Shown: positions 29,369-44,477 of the stretch, in pieces
Layout of the letters: the number at the start of each line of letters is the position of its first letter
Numbering within the stretch: position 1 is the first letter of the stretch
The notes under the pieces: generated by a model
The model's database searches: none
The model's input: only the letters and a program-made list of their open reading frames with translations
Told to the model about the DNA's origin: nothing
From: Affinundibacterium nitidum
GTDB lineage: Bacteria > Pseudomonadota > Gammaproteobacteria > Burkholderiales > Burkholderiaceae_D
Assembly (NCBI RefSeq): GCF_014284155.1
Contig: NZ_JACOFZ010000005.1
Location: forward strand, 1 to 64,000
DNA: 64,000 nt
Direction of reading: 5' to 3'
Translations under genes and position numbers: made by a program

Positions 29369-32300
29369 TTAGCTCTCGTATGGGAGCTTAATTGTGAAGC
29401 ACGTGCCTACACCGAGCTCGGTTGTAAAGCTAATCTTGCCGTGATGTTTATTGACGATCTTCTTGACGATATCCAAACCTAAACCGCTACCTTCACCTAC
29501 AGCTTTCGTCGTAAAGAATACGTCAAATATCTTGTCGCGAATGGCCTCGGGAATGCCTGGGCCAGTATCGGCGATCGTGACCACCGCATGATCGTCTTCC
29601 TTCCGAATGCCGATGCTTAGGCACCCTTTGTAGTCCATCGCTTGCAATGCATTGTGTATGAGATTCACCCAGACTTGAACTAGCTCGTCTGGCCAACAAG
29701 AGATTTCGGGAATTTCTTCGAAATGACAAATAAGTTCAGTACCCTTATTGATCTTATTCTGGTATAGCGTTAATACTGTCTCCATGCCCTCACGTAGATT
29801 GCTCAGTTGCTTCTCGTTGCTACTGCCAATACGAGAGAATGACTTGAATGCGAAGACAATTTTGGAGACTCGATCGACCGCGACTTGAATATTTTTAGCG
29901 CTGTTGACGATAGCAGCAATTTCGTTTGCGGCATGTAAAATGCGATCGCATTCAAGATGTTGGAGCAGGGGTAAGAAACGATCGATATGATTCTGTGCCC
30001 GCAATTGCACGAGTATCGCGGCTTTGCGCCTAGCGTCCGAAATATTGAGCTGCTCTAGTGCGACTGTCGTATCACTCGCAACTTTGCGCTCCTCACGAGT
30101 GTTGAGAATGACATTGGTGGAATTCAGATTTTCAATCAAATCTAAAAACAACTGGCGTAAATCGGGTTCGAGTAGATACATGAGGCTCGATAGTTCCGTC
30201 ATGGCTGTATTTAAGGCATTCGAAATATTATTTCCGCTCGATTTGATAGCTCCAATCGGTGTGTTGATTTCATGAGCCACGTTGGCGACGAGTTGTCCCA
30301 ATGAAGCCATTTTTTCCTGTTGCGCCAACTGTCTTTGTGCATCGATCAAGTGGCGGTGAGACTGTGAGTTCGCCACGGCAATGGCAACGTAGTTCACCAA
30401 TGCGCGTAAGAATTCGACTTGATCTTGTGGATAAGCGTGCTCGCGCGGACTTTGTATGGTCATGCAACCGATGACTTTCTCTTCCACCACGAGTGGCAAA
30501 TAAATAATTGATTGCATCGGCTCACCAGATTTTGCTGGTGCGATTTTATCGAAATATTTAAGTAGCTCTGCTTCGGTGTTGGTAATGAGTTCACGCTTAT
30601 GTTCCACGCACCAGACCGCGGGTCTATCTTTTTCATCCATGGTGTAGCGGAACGGCTCCTGCCTGACACCACCCTCAATCATGTAACCAACTTCAATCGC
30701 ATCAGTACTGTTGTCAAAGAAGGCGATACCGAACACGTGTGCATCGACCCTTGCAAACACTTGTTTCTGGATACGTTCAAACGCTTTTTCAGTGTCGAGT
30801 GTCGCGGTGAGTCCTTGTCCGACTTCCCCTAGTTTCATAATGTCTGAGGTACGCGCATCGACGAGATTTTGCAGCAGACGTTTTTCTTTTCTCACTCGTT
30901 CTATGCGCAGTTTATACATGCTGTAAATGCTGCCGCTGACAATTAAGAGTACCAGTAAAATAAACCACTTTGTTTGCCAGAAAGCAGGCAATACGATAAT
31001 AGGAATACTCAGCTCATTTTCACTCCATTCGCCTTGATTATTGCTGGCTTTGATTTGCAGCGTGTACTCTCCGGGCCATAAATTGCTGTAGCTGACGCTG
31101 CGATGTTCAGAGTCAGTTTCAATCCATTCACTTTGATAGCCCAATAGTCGATAGGCATATCGATTGCGTTGTGGAACAAGAAAATCTAAAGACGAAAATT
31201 CAAATTCGAAATGGCGTTGGCCTGGGCGCATTTGCAGACCTTCATTGATTTGCGCGAGATTCTGATCAATCCCATTGGTTTTTAGTTTGGTGATGACCAC
31301 TGGTGGCTGAAAGGTCCATGCGTCAAATTTATCTGGTTTAATGATCGCCGCGCCTTTAGTGCCGCCGTAGAGAAAAAGTCCATCCTTGGTTTTGGCAAAA
31401 CTACCTATCCATGCAGTACCAATATCAATGCCTATCGATTTTGATAGCTCCATCAATTTGTTTGCCTTTGGATCGTATATAAACCATTGAGTCCAGATAC
31501 GGCCCAGGGAGTCTTCCAGCAAATTACCGCCGAGGTATAAGGCGGGGCGTCCAACTTTGTCGCCTATATGTTCGAAGCGGGCGCGGTTGCCATCCCACTG
31601 GATGAGTCGATCAAATCCTTGGGACGTATCGACCCATAGCTGGCCACGGCTATCGAACAAAAGACCATTGACGTCATCATGACTTAGGCTATTGGGATCG
31701 TAATCGAGGTGAGTTATTTGCTTGAGTTCTTTGGTGTGGGTATTAAGGACCCATACCCCATGCTCACTGGCCGCCCAAATATTGCCCAGATTGTCTTCAC
31801 TGATTGAAGTGACGTACCCCGAATTTTGAAGATCTTTATTGGTGGCGTAGGCCTCGAATTGATCTGTTTCAGGAATCCAGCGGGCAAATCCTTGTGTAGT
31901 GCCTACCCAGAGTTCCTGTTTCTTGCTGACATAGAGTGTGGGGGTTTGATTACTCGGTAGACCGTGGATCACCGAATACGTTCGCCATTCACTCGCTTTA
32001 GGTTTGAGTCGTTTCAGACCAGATTGGCGGGTACCTGCCCATAAATTTCCATCTGCCATTTCCGCTAAAGCCAAGACGGCTGGCGCCATCGATGTTTCAG
32101 ATTGATTCGCAGAAGGGCGATAGCCACCGATAATGCCGCGACGACGATCTACAATATCGATCCCATTGCCCTCGGTACCGAATAAAATGCGTCCATCCAT
32201 GGTTTCCAGAATGCTTCGCACATTGGCTCGCGTCAATCCCGTTGAATAGGTGGGGCTATGACGCAGCATGCGAATGGTGTCGTGGCTCGGTAAATGTTTC

Positions 32301-33454
32301 TGTAATCCATTTCCCCAAGTGCCTACCCAAAGTATGCCCGATCTGTCTTTCAGCATTGAACCTATTTGGTCGAGGGCTAGGCTACTAGGGATGGCGGGAT
32401 CGTTGCGCATACGATGCAAGATGTGGCCGTCTTTGGCACTCACGATATAAATTCCGTAGCCATAACGTGAGAGCCAGATTTCGTCTTCGTCAGCCTGCAA
32501 AATACCATCAACCACGTTGTCAGCGAGGACATTGCCTGCGATAGCGTCAAGTCCTATGCGGTGCAAAGAGTTACTTTGAGGTTCTATCCACGCTGCTCCG
32601 TTGCGGGTGAGACCGACCCAAATTTTTCCATCAATAGCCTCGAATATACTACTCACACCATGACCAGCGAGAGAGTTTGCATCATTAGGATCGGACGCAA
32701 TCATTTTGAATTGTTTTTGATCGCTGGAGAGGCGCTGTAGCCCGTTGAAGGTGCCTATCCAGAGGTTGTCAGATTTGTCGACGTAAATACTACGTATCTT
32801 CTGTTCTGACAGACTGTTGCTATTGTTTGCTTGTGGAAGAAAGCGTACTAATTTGCCGCCTTCCGCTGGAAGGTAAGCTAGGCCTAAGACTTCTGCAGCA
32901 ATCCAAATACCGCCTTTGGAGTCTCCCGTTAAACCTATAATGCGTCCCACTTTTGCTTCGTCGTTTAACTCAGGTGACAGTTGTACTTCTTTGAATTGTT
33001 TGAGTTTAGGATTAAAAGTTGCGATTTTGCCGCCATATCCAGCTATCCACAGTGTGCCATCTTTAGCTGGCCACAAAGCTTTGACATAGTCGTCTGGAAG
33101 GGAAAATGGTTCGCGATTGCTGTGGGTGAATTTTTCAAATCGATAGCCGTCGTAACGCACTAAGCCAGCTTGCGTTCCTATCCATATAAAGCCAGAACTA
33201 TCCTGAGTGAGAGAAGAGACGATGTTGATAGGCAAGGATTCATCATTGCCTACTTTTTCGAAGAAGTGGTGGGTGTACCAAAAATCTTGTGAATAGGGGA
33301 TTGAGTCATTTTTTGACGTACTTTTGCTTTGATCTGCATAGCTAGTGTTTGAGACTGCGCAAAAGTAGAGGATCGGTAAACAAAGAAAATAGCGGCGCAA
33401 ATTGAGACACCGGGATATCGTTTCATGAATCTTTGACGGTAAACTCTTTATCAC
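29369..33454 (-). CDS. Two-component-propeller sensor histidine kinase
   Basis: I start at the GTG at 33454 because GGAG lies 8 bases upstream; an upstream TTG at 33526 has no ribosome site. The 1361-residue product has a signal sequence or first TM (about 20-38). Fourteen or so propeller strands of the Reg_prop type (GTLWIAGYGG, DNLWIGTFNGLQRL, GILWVGTWGNGLQ) span about 60-700, followed by a Y_Y_Y domain (about 750-815) and one TM (about 822-845). A GAF domain (about 875-1018), a DHp helix with H1061 in VAHEINTPIGAI, and HATPase_c with GEGSGLGLDIVKK complete it. No receiver or DNA-binding domain is attached, unlike many Bacteroidetes relatives. It is divergent from a REC-HK-REC gene that may be its partner. 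Confidence 0.9.
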   Translation of the reverse strand: MIKSLPSKIHETISRCLNLRRYFLCLPILYFCAVSNTSYADQSKSTSKNDSIPYSQDFWYTHHFFEKVGNDESLPINIVSSLTQDSSGFIWIGTQAGLVRYDGYRFEKFTHSNREPFSLPDDYVKALWPAKDGTLWIAGYGGKIATFNPKLKQFKEVQLSPELNDEAKVGRIIGLTGDSKGGIWIAAEVLGLAYLPAEGGKLVRFLPQANNSNSLSEQKIRSIYVDKSDNLWIGTFNGLQRLSSDQKQFKMIASDPNDANSLAGHGVSSIFEAIDGKIWVGLTRNGAAWIEPQSNSLHRIGLDAIAGNVLADNVVDGILQADEDEIWLSRYGYGIYIVSAKDGHILHRMRNDPAIPSSLALDQIGSMLKDRSGILWVGTWGNGLQKHLPSHDTIRMLRHSPTYSTGLTRANVRSILETMDGRILFGTEGNGIDIVDRRRGIIGGYRPSANQSETSMAPAVLALAEMADGNLWAGTRQSGLKRLKPKASEWRTYSVIHGLPSNQTPTLYVSKKQELWVGTTQGFARWIPETDQFEAYATNKDLQNSGYVTSISEDNLGNIWAASEHGVWVLNTHTKELKQITHLDYDPNSLSHDDVNGLLFDSRGQLWVDTSQGFDRLIQWDGNRARFEHIGDKVGRPALYLGGNLLEDSLGRIWTQWFIYDPKANKLMELSKSIGIDIGTAWIGSFAKTKDGLFLYGGTKGAAIIKPDKFDAWTFQPPVVITKLKTNGIDQNLAQINEGLQMRPGQRHFEFEFSSLDFLVPQRNRYAYRLLGYQSEWIETDSEHRSVSYSNLWPGEYTLQIKASNNQGEWSENELSIPIIVLPAFWQTKWFILLVLLIVSGSIYSMYKLRIERVRKEKRLLQNLVDARTSDIMKLGEVGQGLTATLDTEKAFERIQKQVFARVDAHVFGIAFFDNSTDAIEVGYMIEGGVRQEPFRYTMDEKDRPAVWCVEHKRELITNTEAELLKYFDKIAPAKSGEPMQSIIYLPLVVEEKVIGCMTIQSPREHAYPQDQVEFLRALVNYVAIAVANSQSHRHLIDAQRQLAQQEKMASLGQLVANVAHEINTPIGAIKSSGNNISNALNTAMTELSSLMYLLEPDLRQLFLDLIENLNSTNVILNTREERKVASDTTVALEQLNISDARRKAAILVQLRAQNHIDRFLPLLQHLECDRILHAANEIAAIVNSAKNIQVAVDRVSKIVFAFKSFSRIGSSNEKQLSNLREGMETVLTLYQNKINKGTELICHFEEIPEISCWPDELVQVWVNLIHNALQAMDYKGCLSIGIRKEDDHAVVTIADTGPGIPEAIRDKIFDVFFTTKAVGEGSGLGLDIVKKIVNKHHGKISFTTELGVGTCFTIKLPYES

Positions 33455-33859
33455 CTCATGATCTCCAAGATAGTGCAGATCCGTGTATTGCAGACAACGC
33501 TCATGTTGGATTGTCGGTAGGATCAAATGTTTCTATTTTGCATGAAAGCATAGTATCACTCAGCAAACTATTGGCGGTGCGTATGTGGTTTTTATGATGG
33601 CTAAGTTATTGATCATGTGCCTTACCGCCGAATGGATTTGCAAGCAGCAAGGGCGAGTAAATGGAAATTATCAAGAAAACTAGTCAACTTAAAATGATTT
33701 TTGCTTGATCTTTCTCAGAAAATCCCACACCCGCAAAAATTCCTCTTGCGCAACATCTTCACTTCGTGAATACTTTACTTCGTGGAAAGTCAAAATTCCG
33801 CCCGCGTAAGTCGCTACTTTTTCGACTCGCCTAAATGGTACTGCCAACGGATGTAATTC
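33455..33859. promoter_or_regulatory. Divergent 405-bp region between two kinase genes
   Basis: The span holds the leaders of both kinase genes. No convincing gene is present; an 82-codon frame on the minus strand overlaps the start of the next gene and looks random. The direct repeat ACTTCGTG occurs at about 33763-33770 and 33778-33785. No known operator was recognised. Confidence 0.35.
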
Positions 33860-38846: not shown

Positions 38847-38858
38847 ATGGAGCAGATA

Positions 38859-40961
38859 ATGAATGGAATGGAACAAATTGGCGATGTGCCTTGGTCTTAT
38901 GCATGGATTGTAGTGTTGGTTGTATTAGTCGCCTTGTGGCGTCGTGTGCTGTGGTTCTTCGGTGTGATTATCATTCCCGATAACATGATTGGTCTGGTGA
39001 CTAAGAAATTTGTACTGTGGGGCGAACATAAAGATCTACCGCCCGGCAAGATCGTTGCTTTGAATGGTGAGGCGGGTGATCAAGTGGATACCTTGGCTTC
39101 AGGCGTGCATTACGCTCTATGGCCTTGGCAGTACTCAGTGGTCAACGCACCTTTGACGATCATTCCTGAGAATTTCATTGGTGTGGTGGAGTCTCGCGAC
39201 GGTGAGCCTTTAAATGACGGCGATATTATCGGTAAACATGTTGATTGCGATATGTATCAAGATGCCCGTTCCTTCTTGACCGGCGGCGGTCAGCGTGGCC
39301 CACAAGGCCTCGTTATTCCTGAAGGTTCTTATCGTATCAACACGCTGTTATTCCGCGTTAGCCAAGAGTCGGTGACGACCATCGAAAAGAATCAGATCGG
39401 TATTGTTGAAGCGCACGGTGGTTCACCGATACCAAACGGACGTGTGTTGGCACGTCATGTTGACTCCAATACTTTCCAAGATGCTCAAGCCTTTTTGAAT
39501 GGCGGCGGCGAACGTGGTCCACAGATTTCAGTGATCCCGAACGGCCACTATCGAATCAATCCACGGCTCTTCAGCGTGAAGGCTGTCAACGTGATTGACG
39601 TGCCTGACAATATGGTCGGCGTGGTGACCACACGTGAAGGCGCTCCTTTGAACACAGGTGAAATCGCGGGCAAAGAAATAGCGAATCACAACATGTTCCA
39701 AAACGGTCAAGCCTTTATCGACGCGGGTGGTTTCAAAGGTTTGCAAGAACAAGTGATTTTGGCTGGGCGTTACTTTATCAACCCGATGTTTGCGACAGTT
39801 GAAATCGTGGAGATGACGAAAGTACCCATTGCTAATGCGGGTGTGGTGATTGCGTATGTTGGCGATGAAGGTGAAGACGTCACCGGGGATAATTTTAAAC
39901 ATGGTAATTTGGTGAGGAAAAGTCAAAAAGGCGTATGGGTAGAGCCGCTCGATCCAGGTAAATATCCGATCAATCCCTACACTCATAAAGTCGAATGTGT
40001 ACCGACCGCTAACGTTGTCTTGAACTGGGCAACCGGTAAAACTGAAGCACATAACCTTGATAAGAATTTGTCGACCATTACGGTGCGTAGCTCTGATGGC
40101 TTTACCTTTAACTTAGACGTCTCGCAAATTATTCACATTCCACGTACCGATGCACCGAAAGTGATTGCACGTTTCGGTAATGTGGCGAACTTGGTGACGC
40201 AAGTATTGGAACCGACGATTGGTAACTATTTTCGCAATACGGCGCAGGGTTCAGATGTGATTGACTTCTTAAAAGGACGTGCACAACGTCAATCAGACGC
40301 GAAGAACCGCATTGCGGAAGCCCTACGTGAATACAATGTGGTGGCGGTTGACACTTTAATTGGTGACATCTCACCACCAGAGGCTTTGATGAAAACGCTG
40401 ACGGATAGGAAAATCGCGGAACAGGAGCAAGTAACTTTCAAGACCCAACAGTTGGCACAAGTTGCACGTAAAGAGTTAGCTCAGGCACAAGCGATCGCCG
40501 ACACTCAATCGAAAGTGGTTGCGGCTGAGCGTGAAGTAGAAATCTCACAATTCTCTGCCAGCGCAATGGTGAAAAAAGCAGAAGGTGATAAGAATGCACG
40601 CGTGTTGAACGCCGAAGGTGATGCACGTTCCAAAATCGTCAATGCGGAAGCGGACGCGCAAGTGTTTAGTGTGGTCGGTAAAGCGAAAGCGGAAAATACT
40701 TTGGCTGTGGGTACTGCTGAAGCGGAAGTCATTCAGCGTAAAACTGAGGCTGTTGGGCAAAGTAACTATGCCTTGATTGAAGTGGGTCGTGCTTTAGCAG
40801 AAGCGAAGATTCCTCTGGTGCCTCAGATTGTGGCGGGCGGTAGTAATAGTGATGGCGGTGGCTCTTTGGTCAACGTATTGTTGGCAAATTTGGTCAGCAA
40901 AAATCTGCTGCCACCTGAGGAAATCGCAGCATTGAAAGGCGTTGCGACCGAAGCAAAATAA
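38859..40961 (+). CDS. SPFH/flotillin-like protein with about five N-terminal tandem repeats
   Basis: The ATG at 38859 has GGAG six bases upstream; the ATG at 38847 has none. The 700-residue protein has one TM near the N-terminus (about 15-36). It then carries five successive units of about 60-70 residues (about 35-96, 101-167, 175-241, 247-316, 322-380). The middle three share a pattern like IPxNxIGVVExxxGxPLxxG, then FQDAxxFLxGGGxRGPQ, then VIPxGxYRINPxLFxV. An SPFH domain (about 385-515) follows, then a long Ala/Glu/Lys-rich coiled coil (about 520-640) and a hydrophobic tail. SPFH proteins form large membrane cages. A terminator follows, so the gene is monocistronic. Confidence 0.85.
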   Translation: MNGMEQIGDVPWSYAWIVVLVVLVALWRRVLWFFGVIIIPDNMIGLVTKKFVLWGEHKDLPPGKIVALNGEAGDQVDTLASGVHYALWPWQYSVVNAPLTIIPENFIGVVESRDGEPLNDGDIIGKHVDCDMYQDARSFLTGGGQRGPQGLVIPEGSYRINTLLFRVSQESVTTIEKNQIGIVEAHGGSPIPNGRVLARHVDSNTFQDAQAFLNGGGERGPQISVIPNGHYRINPRLFSVKAVNVIDVPDNMVGVVTTREGAPLNTGEIAGKEIANHNMFQNGQAFIDAGGFKGLQEQVILAGRYFINPMFATVEIVEMTKVPIANAGVVIAYVGDEGEDVTGDNFKHGNLVRKSQKGVWVEPLDPGKYPINPYTHKVECVPTANVVLNWATGKTEAHNLDKNLSTITVRSSDGFTFNLDVSQIIHIPRTDAPKVIARFGNVANLVTQVLEPTIGNYFRNTAQGSDVIDFLKGRAQRQSDAKNRIAEALREYNVVAVDTLIGDISPPEALMKTLTDRKIAEQEQVTFKTQQLAQVARKELAQAQAIADTQSKVVAAEREVEISQFSASAMVKKAEGDKNARVLNAEGDARSKIVNAEADAQVFSVVGKAKAENTLAVGTAEAEVIQRKTEAVGQSNYALIEVGRALAEAKIPLVPQIVAGGSNSDGGGSLVNVLLANLVSKNLLPPEEIAALKGVATEAK

Positions 40962-42563: not shown

Positions 42564-43322
42564 ATGAAGAAGTATTTGAGGTTTATTCCGATCGCGCTGA
42601 CGCTCACTTTGGTCGGTCTCTTTCTCTGGCACGGACCCATCGTTCAATTAGCCAATTACCATGCGTTTGCCGATCAAAGTACGTGGCTTGGTATCGACCA
42701 CGCAATGGACGTTTTGTCGAATTTTGGATTTCTGGCGGTTGGCCTGTGGACCCTATTTTTTTTGTTCAGTAGACCTCAGTGTATCAACAGCAATAATAAG
42801 CCCGCTTTGACGGTGTTTGCACTGAGTGTGTTGGCAACTGCTTGGTGCTCGTCTTATTACCACTTGGCGCCCGATGATACGCGTTTGTTTTGGGATCGTT
42901 TGCCGATCGCGATTGCTTGTGCGTCCTTGTTGAGTTTGATTCCAGCTGCCTGCTTCGTGTCGCCTAAACAAGCAAGACTTGAATTGATCGGATTCTGTGT
43001 GTTTGCTTTTGCTTCCGTATGGTGGTGGCAACAGACATCCGATCTGCGTCCTTACTTATCGCTACAAGTGTTGGCGATTACATTGCCGCCTGTATGGCAA
43101 TGGCTTTATGGGCGTCCGAGTCGAGAAAGAGTTTGGTTCGCAGTCGCGATTGCTTGCTACGTTTTGGCAAAATGTGTTGAGATGGCCGACGCTTCTATCT
43201 TATCGGCCACGGCCATGGTTTCGGGACATACCATCAAGCATGTATTGGCAGCGTTTGCCGCCTACTTTATTTTGAAGGCGCAGCTGAAGTTGCCAGACGC
43301 TTTGGTAGTAAAGCTTCATTGA
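42564..43322 (+). CDS. CREST-superfamily membrane hydrolase (alkaline-ceramidase-like)
   Basis: The ATG at 42564 follows GAGGAG; an upstream in-frame ATG at 42483 is less likely. The 252-residue protein has about seven TM segments and the metal-hydrolase signature of the CREST superfamily (alkaline ceramidase, PAQR, Per1). It has the S-S-Y-Y-H100 cluster, D111 (FWDRLP) and H222-T-I-K-H226 near the C-terminus, along with an acidic-His pair in GIDHAMDVLSN. Alkaline ceramidases cleave amide-linked fatty acids in membranes. In bacteria without sphingolipids the substrate is unknown. It overlaps the convergent C13 peptidase gene by 56 bp. Confidence 0.78.
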   Translation: MKKYLRFIPIALTLTLVGLFLWHGPIVQLANYHAFADQSTWLGIDHAMDVLSNFGFLAVGLWTLFFLFSRPQCINSNNKPALTVFALSVLATAWCSSYYHLAPDDTRLFWDRLPIAIACASLLSLIPAACFVSPKQARLELIGFCVFAFASVWWWQQTSDLRPYLSLQVLAITLPPVWQWLYGRPSRERVWFAVAIACYVLAKCVEMADASILSATAMVSGHTIKHVLAAFAAYFILKAQLKLPDALVVKLH

Positions 43323-44190
43323 GCGGAACCTCAACGATTGCTTTCATTTTTTCGCCAATAAAAATTTGCGGTTCTGAAGGAACTAACTCTTTCTCAGACT
43401 CGCGTTTTTTGATGCGTTTCAAAGCCGCTTCGAAATTTGCTTTGAGCGAGAGGCGAGAGTCGAAACCGTCGCCGAATAGTTCCTCAACGAAGAAAGTATT
43501 ATTGGATAGAGGTTGGCAGCCATAAGACGTTTTTCCTTTTGCTGCAGCAGTAAGGATAATGCGATTTTGACTCTCTAGTGCCGGGATCAATGAGCCAGAG
43601 TGACAGGCCGAAACAATGATGATGGTTGGCATATCTTTGAGTGACCTGAGCATCGTCGCTAATTGACCATCGTTGATATTGGCATAGCGTTTATTCCCAA
43701 TTTGTGTCGCTAGAAGTGAAATGTTGCCGTGAGCCGTTAAAAATACCAAGGCAAGATCACCTTCTCGTTGATTTTTGCCAATATGCTTTAGCGTGTCATT
43801 GATATTGCTTAGGTGTGCAAAGGGGCGTGTCAGCGTTTCGGACTGCGGATGGTTATCCATTGCATATTGGATGCTGTTGGGATTAATTTGCGATATCCGT
43901 TTTTGAACCAAATCAACGTCCCCGCGAAACGCTTTAGATTCGGAATCCAAGCCAAACCCTGCGAACCATAAATGAGCGGAGTCAGATGCCTGCGCTCGTT
44001 CCGCGTTGGCTTTCATTTGTTGCAGAAGTAAGGCTTTTGACTGTGCATTCGCCTTTGCATCATCGGGGATGAGGGCCTTCTCCAGCGCGACCGCTTCTTG
44101 ACCTTGCGCGACCGCAATGGCGGCTACCCCGGTCGCGACCATCAGGCAGATTAAAAGTGATGAGAGTTTCTGGGTGAATCGAGTGTTCAT
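43267..44190 (-). CDS. Peptidase C13 (legumain/caspase-clan) family protein
   Basis: I use the ATG at 44190 since it begins directly before the signal peptide (MNTRFTQKLSSLLICLMVATGVAAIAVAQG); a GTG 39 bases earlier is possible. The 307-residue protein shows the clan CD dyad: the histidine motif LVFLTAHG (H154) and the cysteine motif IIIVSACHSGS (C196), plus WFAGFGLDSESKAFRGDVDLV upstream. Bacterial C13 proteins of this type are exported or membrane-attached and act as putative asparaginyl/lysyl endopeptidases. Substrates are unknown. Its 3' end overlaps the CREST gene by 56 bp, so antisense interference is possible. Confidence 0.85.
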   Translation of the reverse strand: MNTRFTQKLSSLLICLMVATGVAAIAVAQGQEAVALEKALIPDDAKANAQSKALLLQQMKANAERAQASDSAHLWFAGFGLDSESKAFRGDVDLVQKRISQINPNSIQYAMDNHPQSETLTRPFAHLSNINDTLKHIGKNQREGDLALVFLTAHGNISLLATQIGNKRYANINDGQLATMLRSLKDMPTIIIVSACHSGSLIPALESQNRIILTAAAKGKTSYGCQPLSNNTFFVEELFGDGFDSRLSLKANFEAALKRIKKRESEKELVPSEPQIFIGEKMKAIVEVPLNEALLPKRLATSAAPSK

Positions 44191-44477
44191 GTTGAGCGAA
44201 AATGCAGTTGTCAAAAAGTCAATCGACACTGTAACGTGAACATACGCAGCGTGTCAAATTTGCATCGATTAAATGTTGATTTTGTTTCGTGATGAATGTT
44301 TCAAACTACGTGAAGACTTCGTCATCCATGAGCGAAATCTGATGGGGTGCAACTCGAATGAAAGAAATTCGTAGCATCTTTTAGTACGACTTAGTTTGGA
44401 TTGCGCTACTTCCGAGATTATTGAGGTTTGCACATGAGGCTGTGTTTAAATGAGCTCCACTTTTAATGGAGGTTGAG

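What the first reader, a model, noticed from the sequence alone, without database searches (positions are those of the whole stretch)
38859..40961. SPFH protein with about five tandem N-terminal repeats, a possible membrane-anchored vault-like architecture
Seen: five successive units of 60-70 residues (about 35-96, 101-167, 175-241, 247-316, 322-380), three of them very similar, then an SPFH domain, then a long Ala/Glu/Lys coiled coil. Known: major vault protein has several tandem repeats, a shoulder domain of SPFH-like fold and a cap helix. Inference: the same order of parts, here with a TM helix first, suggests a cage- or ring-forming assembly at the membrane, not an ordinary flotillin, which lacks such repeats.
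Basis: partly seen in the sequence, partly recalled or inferred. Interest (0 to 1): 0.7.

Follow-up and report, generated by a model that had tools for sequence, protein, structure and literature searches.

The report
Membrane-anchored bacterial vault-like cage protein
A bacterial membrane protein appears to combine a membrane anchor, a stack of small repeated modules and a cage-forming domain in the same order as the protein of the mysterious vault particle of our own cells, which suggests a membrane-tethered 'half-vault'.

Summary
Window 38859-40961 (+) encodes a 700-aa protein: N-terminal TM helix, five consecutive beta units, SPFH (Band_7) domain, long Ala/Glu/Lys helix. Three units are clear sequence repeats (35-53% identical); the outer two are repeats mainly by predicted fold.

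It belongs to a patchy SPFH family of several bacterial phyla and some phages. Relatives differ by whole units: 21 of 86 have three strict repeats, 65 of 86 have two, one Vibrio phage protein has one.

An AlphaFold2 model (pLDDT 83) was searched against the PDB. The twelve best hits are all major vault protein (MVP), ahead of prohibitin, erlin, HflK/C and flotillin; crystals of MVP repeats R1-R7 alone also match (E about 5e-6). Sequence profiles do not link the repeats to MVP, so common descent is unproven; the likeness is of fold and domain order.

Best reading: a membrane-anchored, cytoplasm-facing SPFH cage whose wall is raised by stacked MVP-like repeat rings, a tethered half-vault enclosing a membrane patch. 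Oligomerisation was not testable here. It is not an MVP: TM helix, fewer repeats, no Vault or MVP_shoulder match. New variant of a known kind.

The parts
38859..40961 (+). CDS, 700 aa (704 aa if read from the upstream in-frame ATG at 38847)
   Evidence: ORF; Shine-Dalgarno-like GGAG at 38849-38852 before ATG 38859; orthologs L035-L037 start at the same residue
38892..38960 (+). N-terminal transmembrane helix with Arg-Arg on its C-terminal side (residues 16-38); charge pattern suggests N-out, C-in
   Evidence: hydrophobic window in 86 of 86 members; net charge higher on the C-terminal side in 64 of 73, equal in 6, lower in 3; helices 2-29 and 31-37 in the model
38967..39146 (+). Beta unit 1 (residues 41-100), weak by sequence
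   Evidence: strand pattern in the model; repeat HMM E 0.02-0.5 only
39153..39362 (+). Beta unit 2 (residues 103-172), strict repeat
39372..39581 (+). Beta unit 3 (residues 176-245), strict repeat; units 2 and 3 are the related pair where four-unit relatives have a single unit
   Evidence: units 2 and 3 are 53% identical; both resemble the first strict unit of two-unit relatives, so which of them is the added one is open
39591..39806 (+). Beta unit 4 (residues 249-320), strict repeat
39813..40004 (+). Beta unit 5 (residues 323-386), weak by sequence, merges into the start of the SPFH domain
   Evidence: strand pattern, third strand short; repeat HMM up to E 1e-4 in relatives; Band_7 match begins at residue 360
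39924..40475 (+). SPFH / Band_7 domain (residues 360-543)
   Evidence: Pfam PF01145 E 4.5e-32; 73 of 73 members of A2 match
40380..40802 (+). Long Ala/Glu/Lys helix, coiled-coil candidate (residues 512-652, low-confidence break at 561-584)
   Evidence: DSSP and pLDDT of the model; this part of the family profile matches the flotillin-2 helix, E 4.7e-6
40803..40958 (+). C-terminal tail with Gly/Ser-rich linker and two short helices (residues 653-704)
   Evidence: model, low confidence

Best explanation
An SPFH-family cage protein of the inner membrane. One TM helix anchors each subunit, with the rest probably in the cytoplasm. The five beta units stack end to end, and in the oligomer like units of neighbouring subunits lie side by side, so each unit adds one ring to a cylindrical wall. 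Above the wall the SPFH domains form a ring, and the long helices close a domed cap. The result is a tall, membrane-tethered half-vault that encloses a membrane patch and a cytoplasmic chamber, sequestering or scaffolding membrane proteins as other SPFH cages are thought to do. Wall height is set by the number of units. Shown: domain order, repeats, unit-wise variation, predicted fold, fold likeness to MVP. Inferred: oligomer, topology, chamber, function.
For: Domain order. MVP is the best PDB match, ahead of all other SPFH cages printed, and the MVP R1-R7 crystals match without any SPFH domain. Three long strands per unit in units 1-4 of the model, as MVP repeats are described as antiparallel three-stranded sheets (PMC13347060, passages). 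Band_7 in 73 of 73. N-terminal hydrophobic stretch in 86 of 86, positive-inside pattern in 64 of 73. Relatives differ by exactly one strict unit, and the five-unit state needs 3 changes on a quick SPFH tree, which fits interchangeable stacked modules. The SPFH complexes compared in PMC12624060 share a general domed structure (section 12 read). Its helix-length rule (subunits = 0.1782 x CC1 length + 10.22) gives about 21 subunits if CC1 is 512-573, or about 32-35 if the helix runs on to 636-652 (my arithmetic).
Against: No oligomer prediction or experiment. Unit-to-MVP likeness rests on one AF2 model (pTM 0.62) and Foldseek E-values; whole-chain TM-scores are 0.15-0.24 with rmsd over 60 A; repeats-only targets give TM (target) 0.32-0.49; the aligned ranges were not printed. 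Unit 5 lacks the long third strand. No sequence link to MVP. The repeats-only model failed (pLDDT 39.5, two-row alignment). No neighbour gene shared across the family points to a substrate.
Confidence: 0.68

Rival explanations
1. An SPFH membrane protein whose beta units are flexible spacers or ligand-binding modules on the outside of an ordinary SPFH cage (as in flotillin or QmcA), not rings of a wall.
For: The SPFH part and helix resemble flotillin-2, QmcA and prohibitin by profile. The repeats have no sequence match to MVP. The strict units hold invariant Gly and Gln columns that could be a binding site.
Against: The units lie between the TM and the SPFH domain, where an SPFH cage meets its membrane. 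Fold search places MVP above flotillin and QmcA. AF2 is confident of the units and of the short links between them.
Confidence: 0.22
2. The repeats are true homologs of MVP repeats: vault and this family descend from one ancestor, and the eukaryotic vault lost the anchor and joined two half-cages at the N-termini. (A claim about origin; it can hold together with the best explanation.)
For: Same order of parts and best fold match. One Myxococcales MAG (G067) holds both this protein (L068) and an MVP_shoulder protein (L127/L137).
Against: hhalign repeats vs repeats: probability 0.2; whole proteins: 27.7, over the SPFH part (both alignments shallow, Neff 2.3-3.3). Repeat HMM gives nothing on 18 bacterial MVPs beyond shuffled controls. 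Both may have extended an SPFH N-terminal lobe independently.
Confidence: 0.35
3. The units are tandem copies of the first beta lobe of the SPFH domain itself, a local duplication unrelated to vaults by descent. (A claim about origin; it can hold together with the best explanation.)
For: Unit 5 runs into the start of Band_7 and matches the repeat HMM in relatives. Units 1-4 alone give a sub-threshold Band_7 match at residues 73-122, E 0.052.
Against: The Band_7 match to the repeats is below the curated cut-off. The repeat HMM does not find the N-terminal lobe of other SPFH proteins of the same genome.
Confidence: 0.35

Closest known systems
Major vault protein (MVP), eukaryotic and myxobacterial
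   Same: Order of parts: tandem beta repeats, SPFH-like shoulder, long cap helix; best PDB fold match; repeats-only MVP crystals match. Vaults were seen bound to membranes in Dictyostelium cells (PMC13100048, passages).
   Different: MVP has nine repeats, no described membrane motif, and closes by joining two halves (PMC13100048, passages). This family has an N-terminal TM helix and, as I count them, three to five units; the window protein has no Vault or MVP_shoulder match.
Flotillin / QmcA / HflK-HflC / prohibitin / erlin / stomatin cages
   Same: SPFH domain, membrane anchor before it, helix after it.
   Different: No stacked repeats between anchor and SPFH domain (established knowledge of these families); their fold matches rank below MVP.
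Proteins annotated 'flotillin family protein' on Rhizobium plasmids
   Same: Relatives of the window protein, about 33% identity over 74-75% of it in the 20 of 69 records listed, 6 of these 20 so named.
   Different: Unit count in them was not tested here.
Vibrio phage vB_VchM_Kuja Kuja_1010 (putative membrane protein, 547 aa)
   Same: Distant relative over 86% of the query, 26% identity; one strict unit.
   Different: Fewer units; encoded by a phage.

Membership tests
SPFH / Band_7 superfamily | Band_7 domain above curated cut-off | tested here: met
   112 bits against 23.6; 73 of 73 aligned members match
SPFH / Band_7 superfamily | Membrane anchor before and long helix after the SPFH domain | tested here: met
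SPFH / Band_7 superfamily | Large ring or cage oligomer | not testable with these tools
   no multimer modelling; inferred from family
Major vault protein | Vault repeat (PF01505) match | tested here: not met
   no match in the window protein or its units at E 10; not among the 25 of 32 families printed for 73 members at E 1; own genome 0 matches at E 1
Major vault protein | MVP_shoulder (PF11978) match | tested here: not met
   Band_7 is the only Pfam match at E 10
Major vault protein | Order repeats - SPFH-like shoulder - long helix | tested here: met
Major vault protein | MVP-like fold of the repeats | tested here: met
   at the level of fold search only: repeats-only crystals 3gnf, 3gf5, 3gng match at E 4.7e-6 to 9.8e-6, TM (target) 0.32-0.49, ranges not printed
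Major vault protein | Soluble, without membrane anchor | tested here: not met
   N-terminal hydrophobic stretch in 86 of 86, hydropathy at least 1.62, median 2.41; of 18 bacterial MVPs 16 stay below 1.62 anywhere, two reach 1.65 and 1.70 at residues 449 and 234
Major vault protein | Nine repeats | tested here: not met
   five units
Major vault protein | Closed particle of two halves joined at the N-termini | not testable with these tools
   no multimer modelling; an N-terminal TM helix makes it unlikely (inference)
Flotillin FloT (NCBIfam NF058507) | Score above the equivalog cut-off | tested here: not met
   16.8 bits against 700

The most novel reading that the evidence does not exclude
A bacterial and phage family of membrane-tethered half-vaults whose wall height is tuned by adding or removing whole MVP-like repeat rings. 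It would be the missing form between membrane SPFH cages and the free eukaryotic vault, showing how the vault wall arose and suggesting that the vault's original place was on a membrane.
Probability: 0.35. Interest if true: 0.82.

Novelty: new variant of a known kind. Interest (0 to 1): 0.62.

Why it matters
The function of the vault is unknown. Recent work calls MVP domains unique to the vault, reports a minority of vaults bound to membranes in cells, and notes that no membrane motif of the vault is described (PMC13100048, passages read). A bacterial family with an anchor, MVP-like repeats and an SPFH domain would give a genetically simple system for what such cages do, natural variants with different numbers of rings, and a test of how the vault evolved. 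No description of such a family appeared in the listings of searches (open-access library only; those were mostly unrelated papers).

Tried and rejected
Sequence link to MVP. Pfam at E 10 on the protein and on single units, Pfam on 73 members (25 of 32 families printed), a profile against PDB sequences, hhalign against 18 myxobacterial MVPs and the repeat HMM with shuffled and reversed controls did not link the repeats to MVP. The likeness is of fold only.

Search for MVP in the window's relatives with PF01505: a match over the cut-off in 0 of 60 genomes. Weaker matches (32 of 60 at E 1) were discarded, since 5 of 14 control genomes also have such. PF11978 gave 0 of 296 in the phylum of G060, a Chitinophaga, with the warning that nothing rang in the controls, and 20 of 235 in the phylum of G067. 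MVP-like proteins in some bacteria are, as I recall, already in print; I saw no paper on it.

Operon partner: ORFs of at least 70 aa in 85 loci were clustered (25 clusters printed). The largest neighbour clusters cover 17 of 85 loci and look like common domains (histidine kinase, ABC-F ATPase; my reading of the sequences); the others printed are shared mainly within one genus or family.

Pfam on relatives also listed Met_asp_mut_E in 31 of 73 members (best E 9.4e-6). Its place was not printed and I did not follow it up; I take it for a chance match, unproven.

Defence system: no PADLOC match for the protein at E 0.01. Promoter and terminator scan: 2 and 1 sites, not above shuffles. My first guess that the gene at 29369-33526 is alpha-2-macroglobulin was wrong; it is a sensor kinase.

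Topology: a first count with a poor definition of the TM end gave higher charge after the TM in 42 of 86; the second, anchored on the conserved glycine after the TM, gave 64 of 73. The same hydropathy threshold flags a second stretch in 22 of 86, lying in the beta units, so it is not specific on its own.

Parallel duplication of a unit: the SPFH tree needs 3 changes, but it is a quick tree with long-branch warnings, and the tree of units is too short to tell gain from loss or recombination.

Rows dropped before counts: of 102 matching ORFs in 120 loci, 17 were dropped as duplicates of other loci or fragments and 85 kept, 86 with the window. For alignment A2 and the model 73 of 86 were used, 13 close relatives left out. 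The scan behind them kept 80 of 217 relatives.

Full report
WHAT IS THERE. The window holds one ORF of 704 codons at 38847-40961 on the + strand. I number from the first ATG. Pfam sees a single domain, Band_7, at 360-543. NCBIfam gives no model above its cut-off.

THE REPEATS. An HMM built from units 2-4 places them at 104-172, 176-244 and 249-319, with pairwise identities of 53, 41 and 35%. The HMM is circular for the window protein; a family-wide HMM finds two or three such units in 85 of 85 relatives. Units 1 and 5 are weak by sequence in the window and become credible through the model: units 1-4 share one strand order with three long strands, and unit 5 has the same five strands with a short third one. 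Unit 5 runs into the SPFH domain, so one may count it as a repeat or as the first lobe of the SPFH domain. Units 1-4 alone give a sub-threshold Band_7 match, E 0.052, a hint that the units derive from that lobe.

THE FAMILY. Among 41 genomes of the genus and order, 12 match at E 0.001 or better. One of these, G028, has only weak SPFH matches, leaving 11, all among the 25 same-genus genomes, own included. Five of the 11 (G004, G011, G015, G018, G022) carry a divergent form, complete in three at 644-649 aa. In the phylum, 5 of 398 genomes, own included, have a member at E 1e-50; up to three candidates per genome were scored, so this is a lower bound. In genome contigs, 217 of 289 pattern matches encode a relative and 80 were kept, from records named after Pseudomonadota, Acidobacteriota, Bacteroidota, Ignavibacteriota, Spirochaetota, Myxococcota and Patescibacteria-type lineages (many are MAGs). 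Viral contigs gave 7 relatives among 73 pattern matches, plasmids 69 records, phages 8 records.

UNIT NUMBER VARIES IN WHOLE STEPS. Of 86 proteins, 21 have three strict units and 65 have two, plus the two weaker ones. In the three-unit forms the first two units resemble each other (56% mean identity) more than the last (37-39%), and both resemble the first of the two-unit forms (50-52%), so one of them is the added copy. On a tree of the SPFH part and helix (repeats left out; 73 rows, 20 with three strict units) the state needs 3 changes, which starred branches force; shuffled labels need 17.6 on average (quick method, long-branch warnings). Whether these are gains, losses or recombinations is not resolved. 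A jumbo phage protein has two strict units, and a Vibrio phage protein of 547 aa has one.

FOLD. AlphaFold2 with the 73-row alignment gives mean pLDDT 83 and pTM 0.62, with ten-residue means of 88-97 from residue 41 to 340. Foldseek against the PDB ranks MVP chains 1-12 (E 1.7e-14 to 7.8e-13), then prohibitin (2.7e-10), erlin, HflK/C, stomatin, flotillin and QmcA. Crystals of MVP R1-R7, which have no SPFH domain, match at E 4.7e-6 to 9.8e-6 over 385-414 columns, gaps included, about the span of the units (50 of 202 matches printed). Against this: whole-chain TM-scores are 0.15-0.24, repeats-only TM (target) 0.32-0.49, ranges were not printed, and the repeats-only model I meant as a clean test failed through a two-row alignment. 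In the viral library the best hit is an 802-aa protein of a giant virus. MVP repeats are described as antiparallel three-stranded sheets (PMC13347060, passages), which fits the three long strands of units 1-4.

SEQUENCE SAYS NOTHING ABOUT MVP. MVP_shoulder proteins are present in 20 of 235 genomes of the phylum of G067, a Myxococcales MAG. I fetched 18 of the 21 matches and compared profiles: repeats against repeats probability 0.2, whole proteins 27.7 over the SPFH part; both alignments are shallow. The repeat HMM finds nothing in 18 MVPs or in the other SPFH proteins of this genome beyond shuffled controls. So I claim likeness of fold and architecture, not descent. That MAG holds both proteins.

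TOPOLOGY. A hydrophobic N-terminal stretch is present in 86 of 86. Net charge is higher on its C-terminal side in 64 of 73, equal in 6 and lower in 3, which by the positive-inside rule puts the units, SPFH domain and helix in the cytoplasm. A first version of this count, with a poor definition of the TM end, gave 42 of 86.

MECHANISM. The SPFH complexes compared in PMC12624060 share a domed structure (section 12). Here anchor, units, SPFH domain and helix come in an order that would give a taller cage: membrane, stacked rings of units, SPFH ring, helical cap. The rule in that section linking helix length to copy number gives about 21 subunits if the helix ends at 573, or 32-35 if it continues to 636-652. 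Shown: order, repeats, unit steps, predicted fold. Inferred: oligomer, rings, chamber, cytoplasmic side. The likely role is sequestration or scaffolding of membrane proteins. No gene neighbourhood points to a client. The genome has 8 Band_7 proteins, this one included.

PLACE AMONG KNOWN THINGS. It is an SPFH protein by membership. It is not an MVP (no Vault or MVP_shoulder match, a TM helix, five units) and not FloT. It works, if the reading is right, like a half-vault on a membrane. [quoted passage not shown] The main text of the classification of prokaryotic SPFH proteins PMC2636767 holds neither 'vault' nor 'MVP', and no repeat architecture in the passages seen; that of the P. aeruginosa survey PMC13086221 holds neither 'repeat' nor 'vault'. 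The listings of the open-access searches showed no description of such a family.

Noticed in passing
L118 (319-kb IMG/VR contig), L168 (LR756502.1, 642-kb uncultured phage), L169 (Vibrio phage Kuja): Large phage records and Vibrio phages carry members of this family; L168 has two strict units and 49% identity to the window protein over 81% of it, Kuja_1010 has one strict unit. That L118 is a phage is the collection's call and my reading of its ORFs. A membrane-anchored vault-like protein in phages is unexplained.
   Followed up: partly
G067: L068 and L127/L137: One Myxococcales MAG carries both this family and an MVP_shoulder protein; 20 of 235 genomes of its phylum hold MVP_shoulder proteins.
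   Followed up: partly
L015:396-1346 and 1480-2829: In this genome the divergent form of the family lies directly after a stomatin-like SPFH gene (stomatin-like is my reading), a possible two-SPFH operon.
   Followed up: no
L161:1075-3246: Another long SPFH protein of the same genome (723 aa), with a Cys-rich N-terminal stretch and a very long Gln-rich helix, beside an FHA-like ORF (these features are my reading of the sequence).
   Followed up: no
window 43267-44229 (-): Peptidase C13 (legumain-like) / caspase-like protein.
   Followed up: no
BFVD A0A3G5A4K1 (Harvfovirus, 802 aa): A giant-virus protein annotated as prohibitin-domain is the best viral fold match over 773 columns (E 1.1e-13); its length suggests a viral MVP-like protein, not tested.
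   Followed up: no
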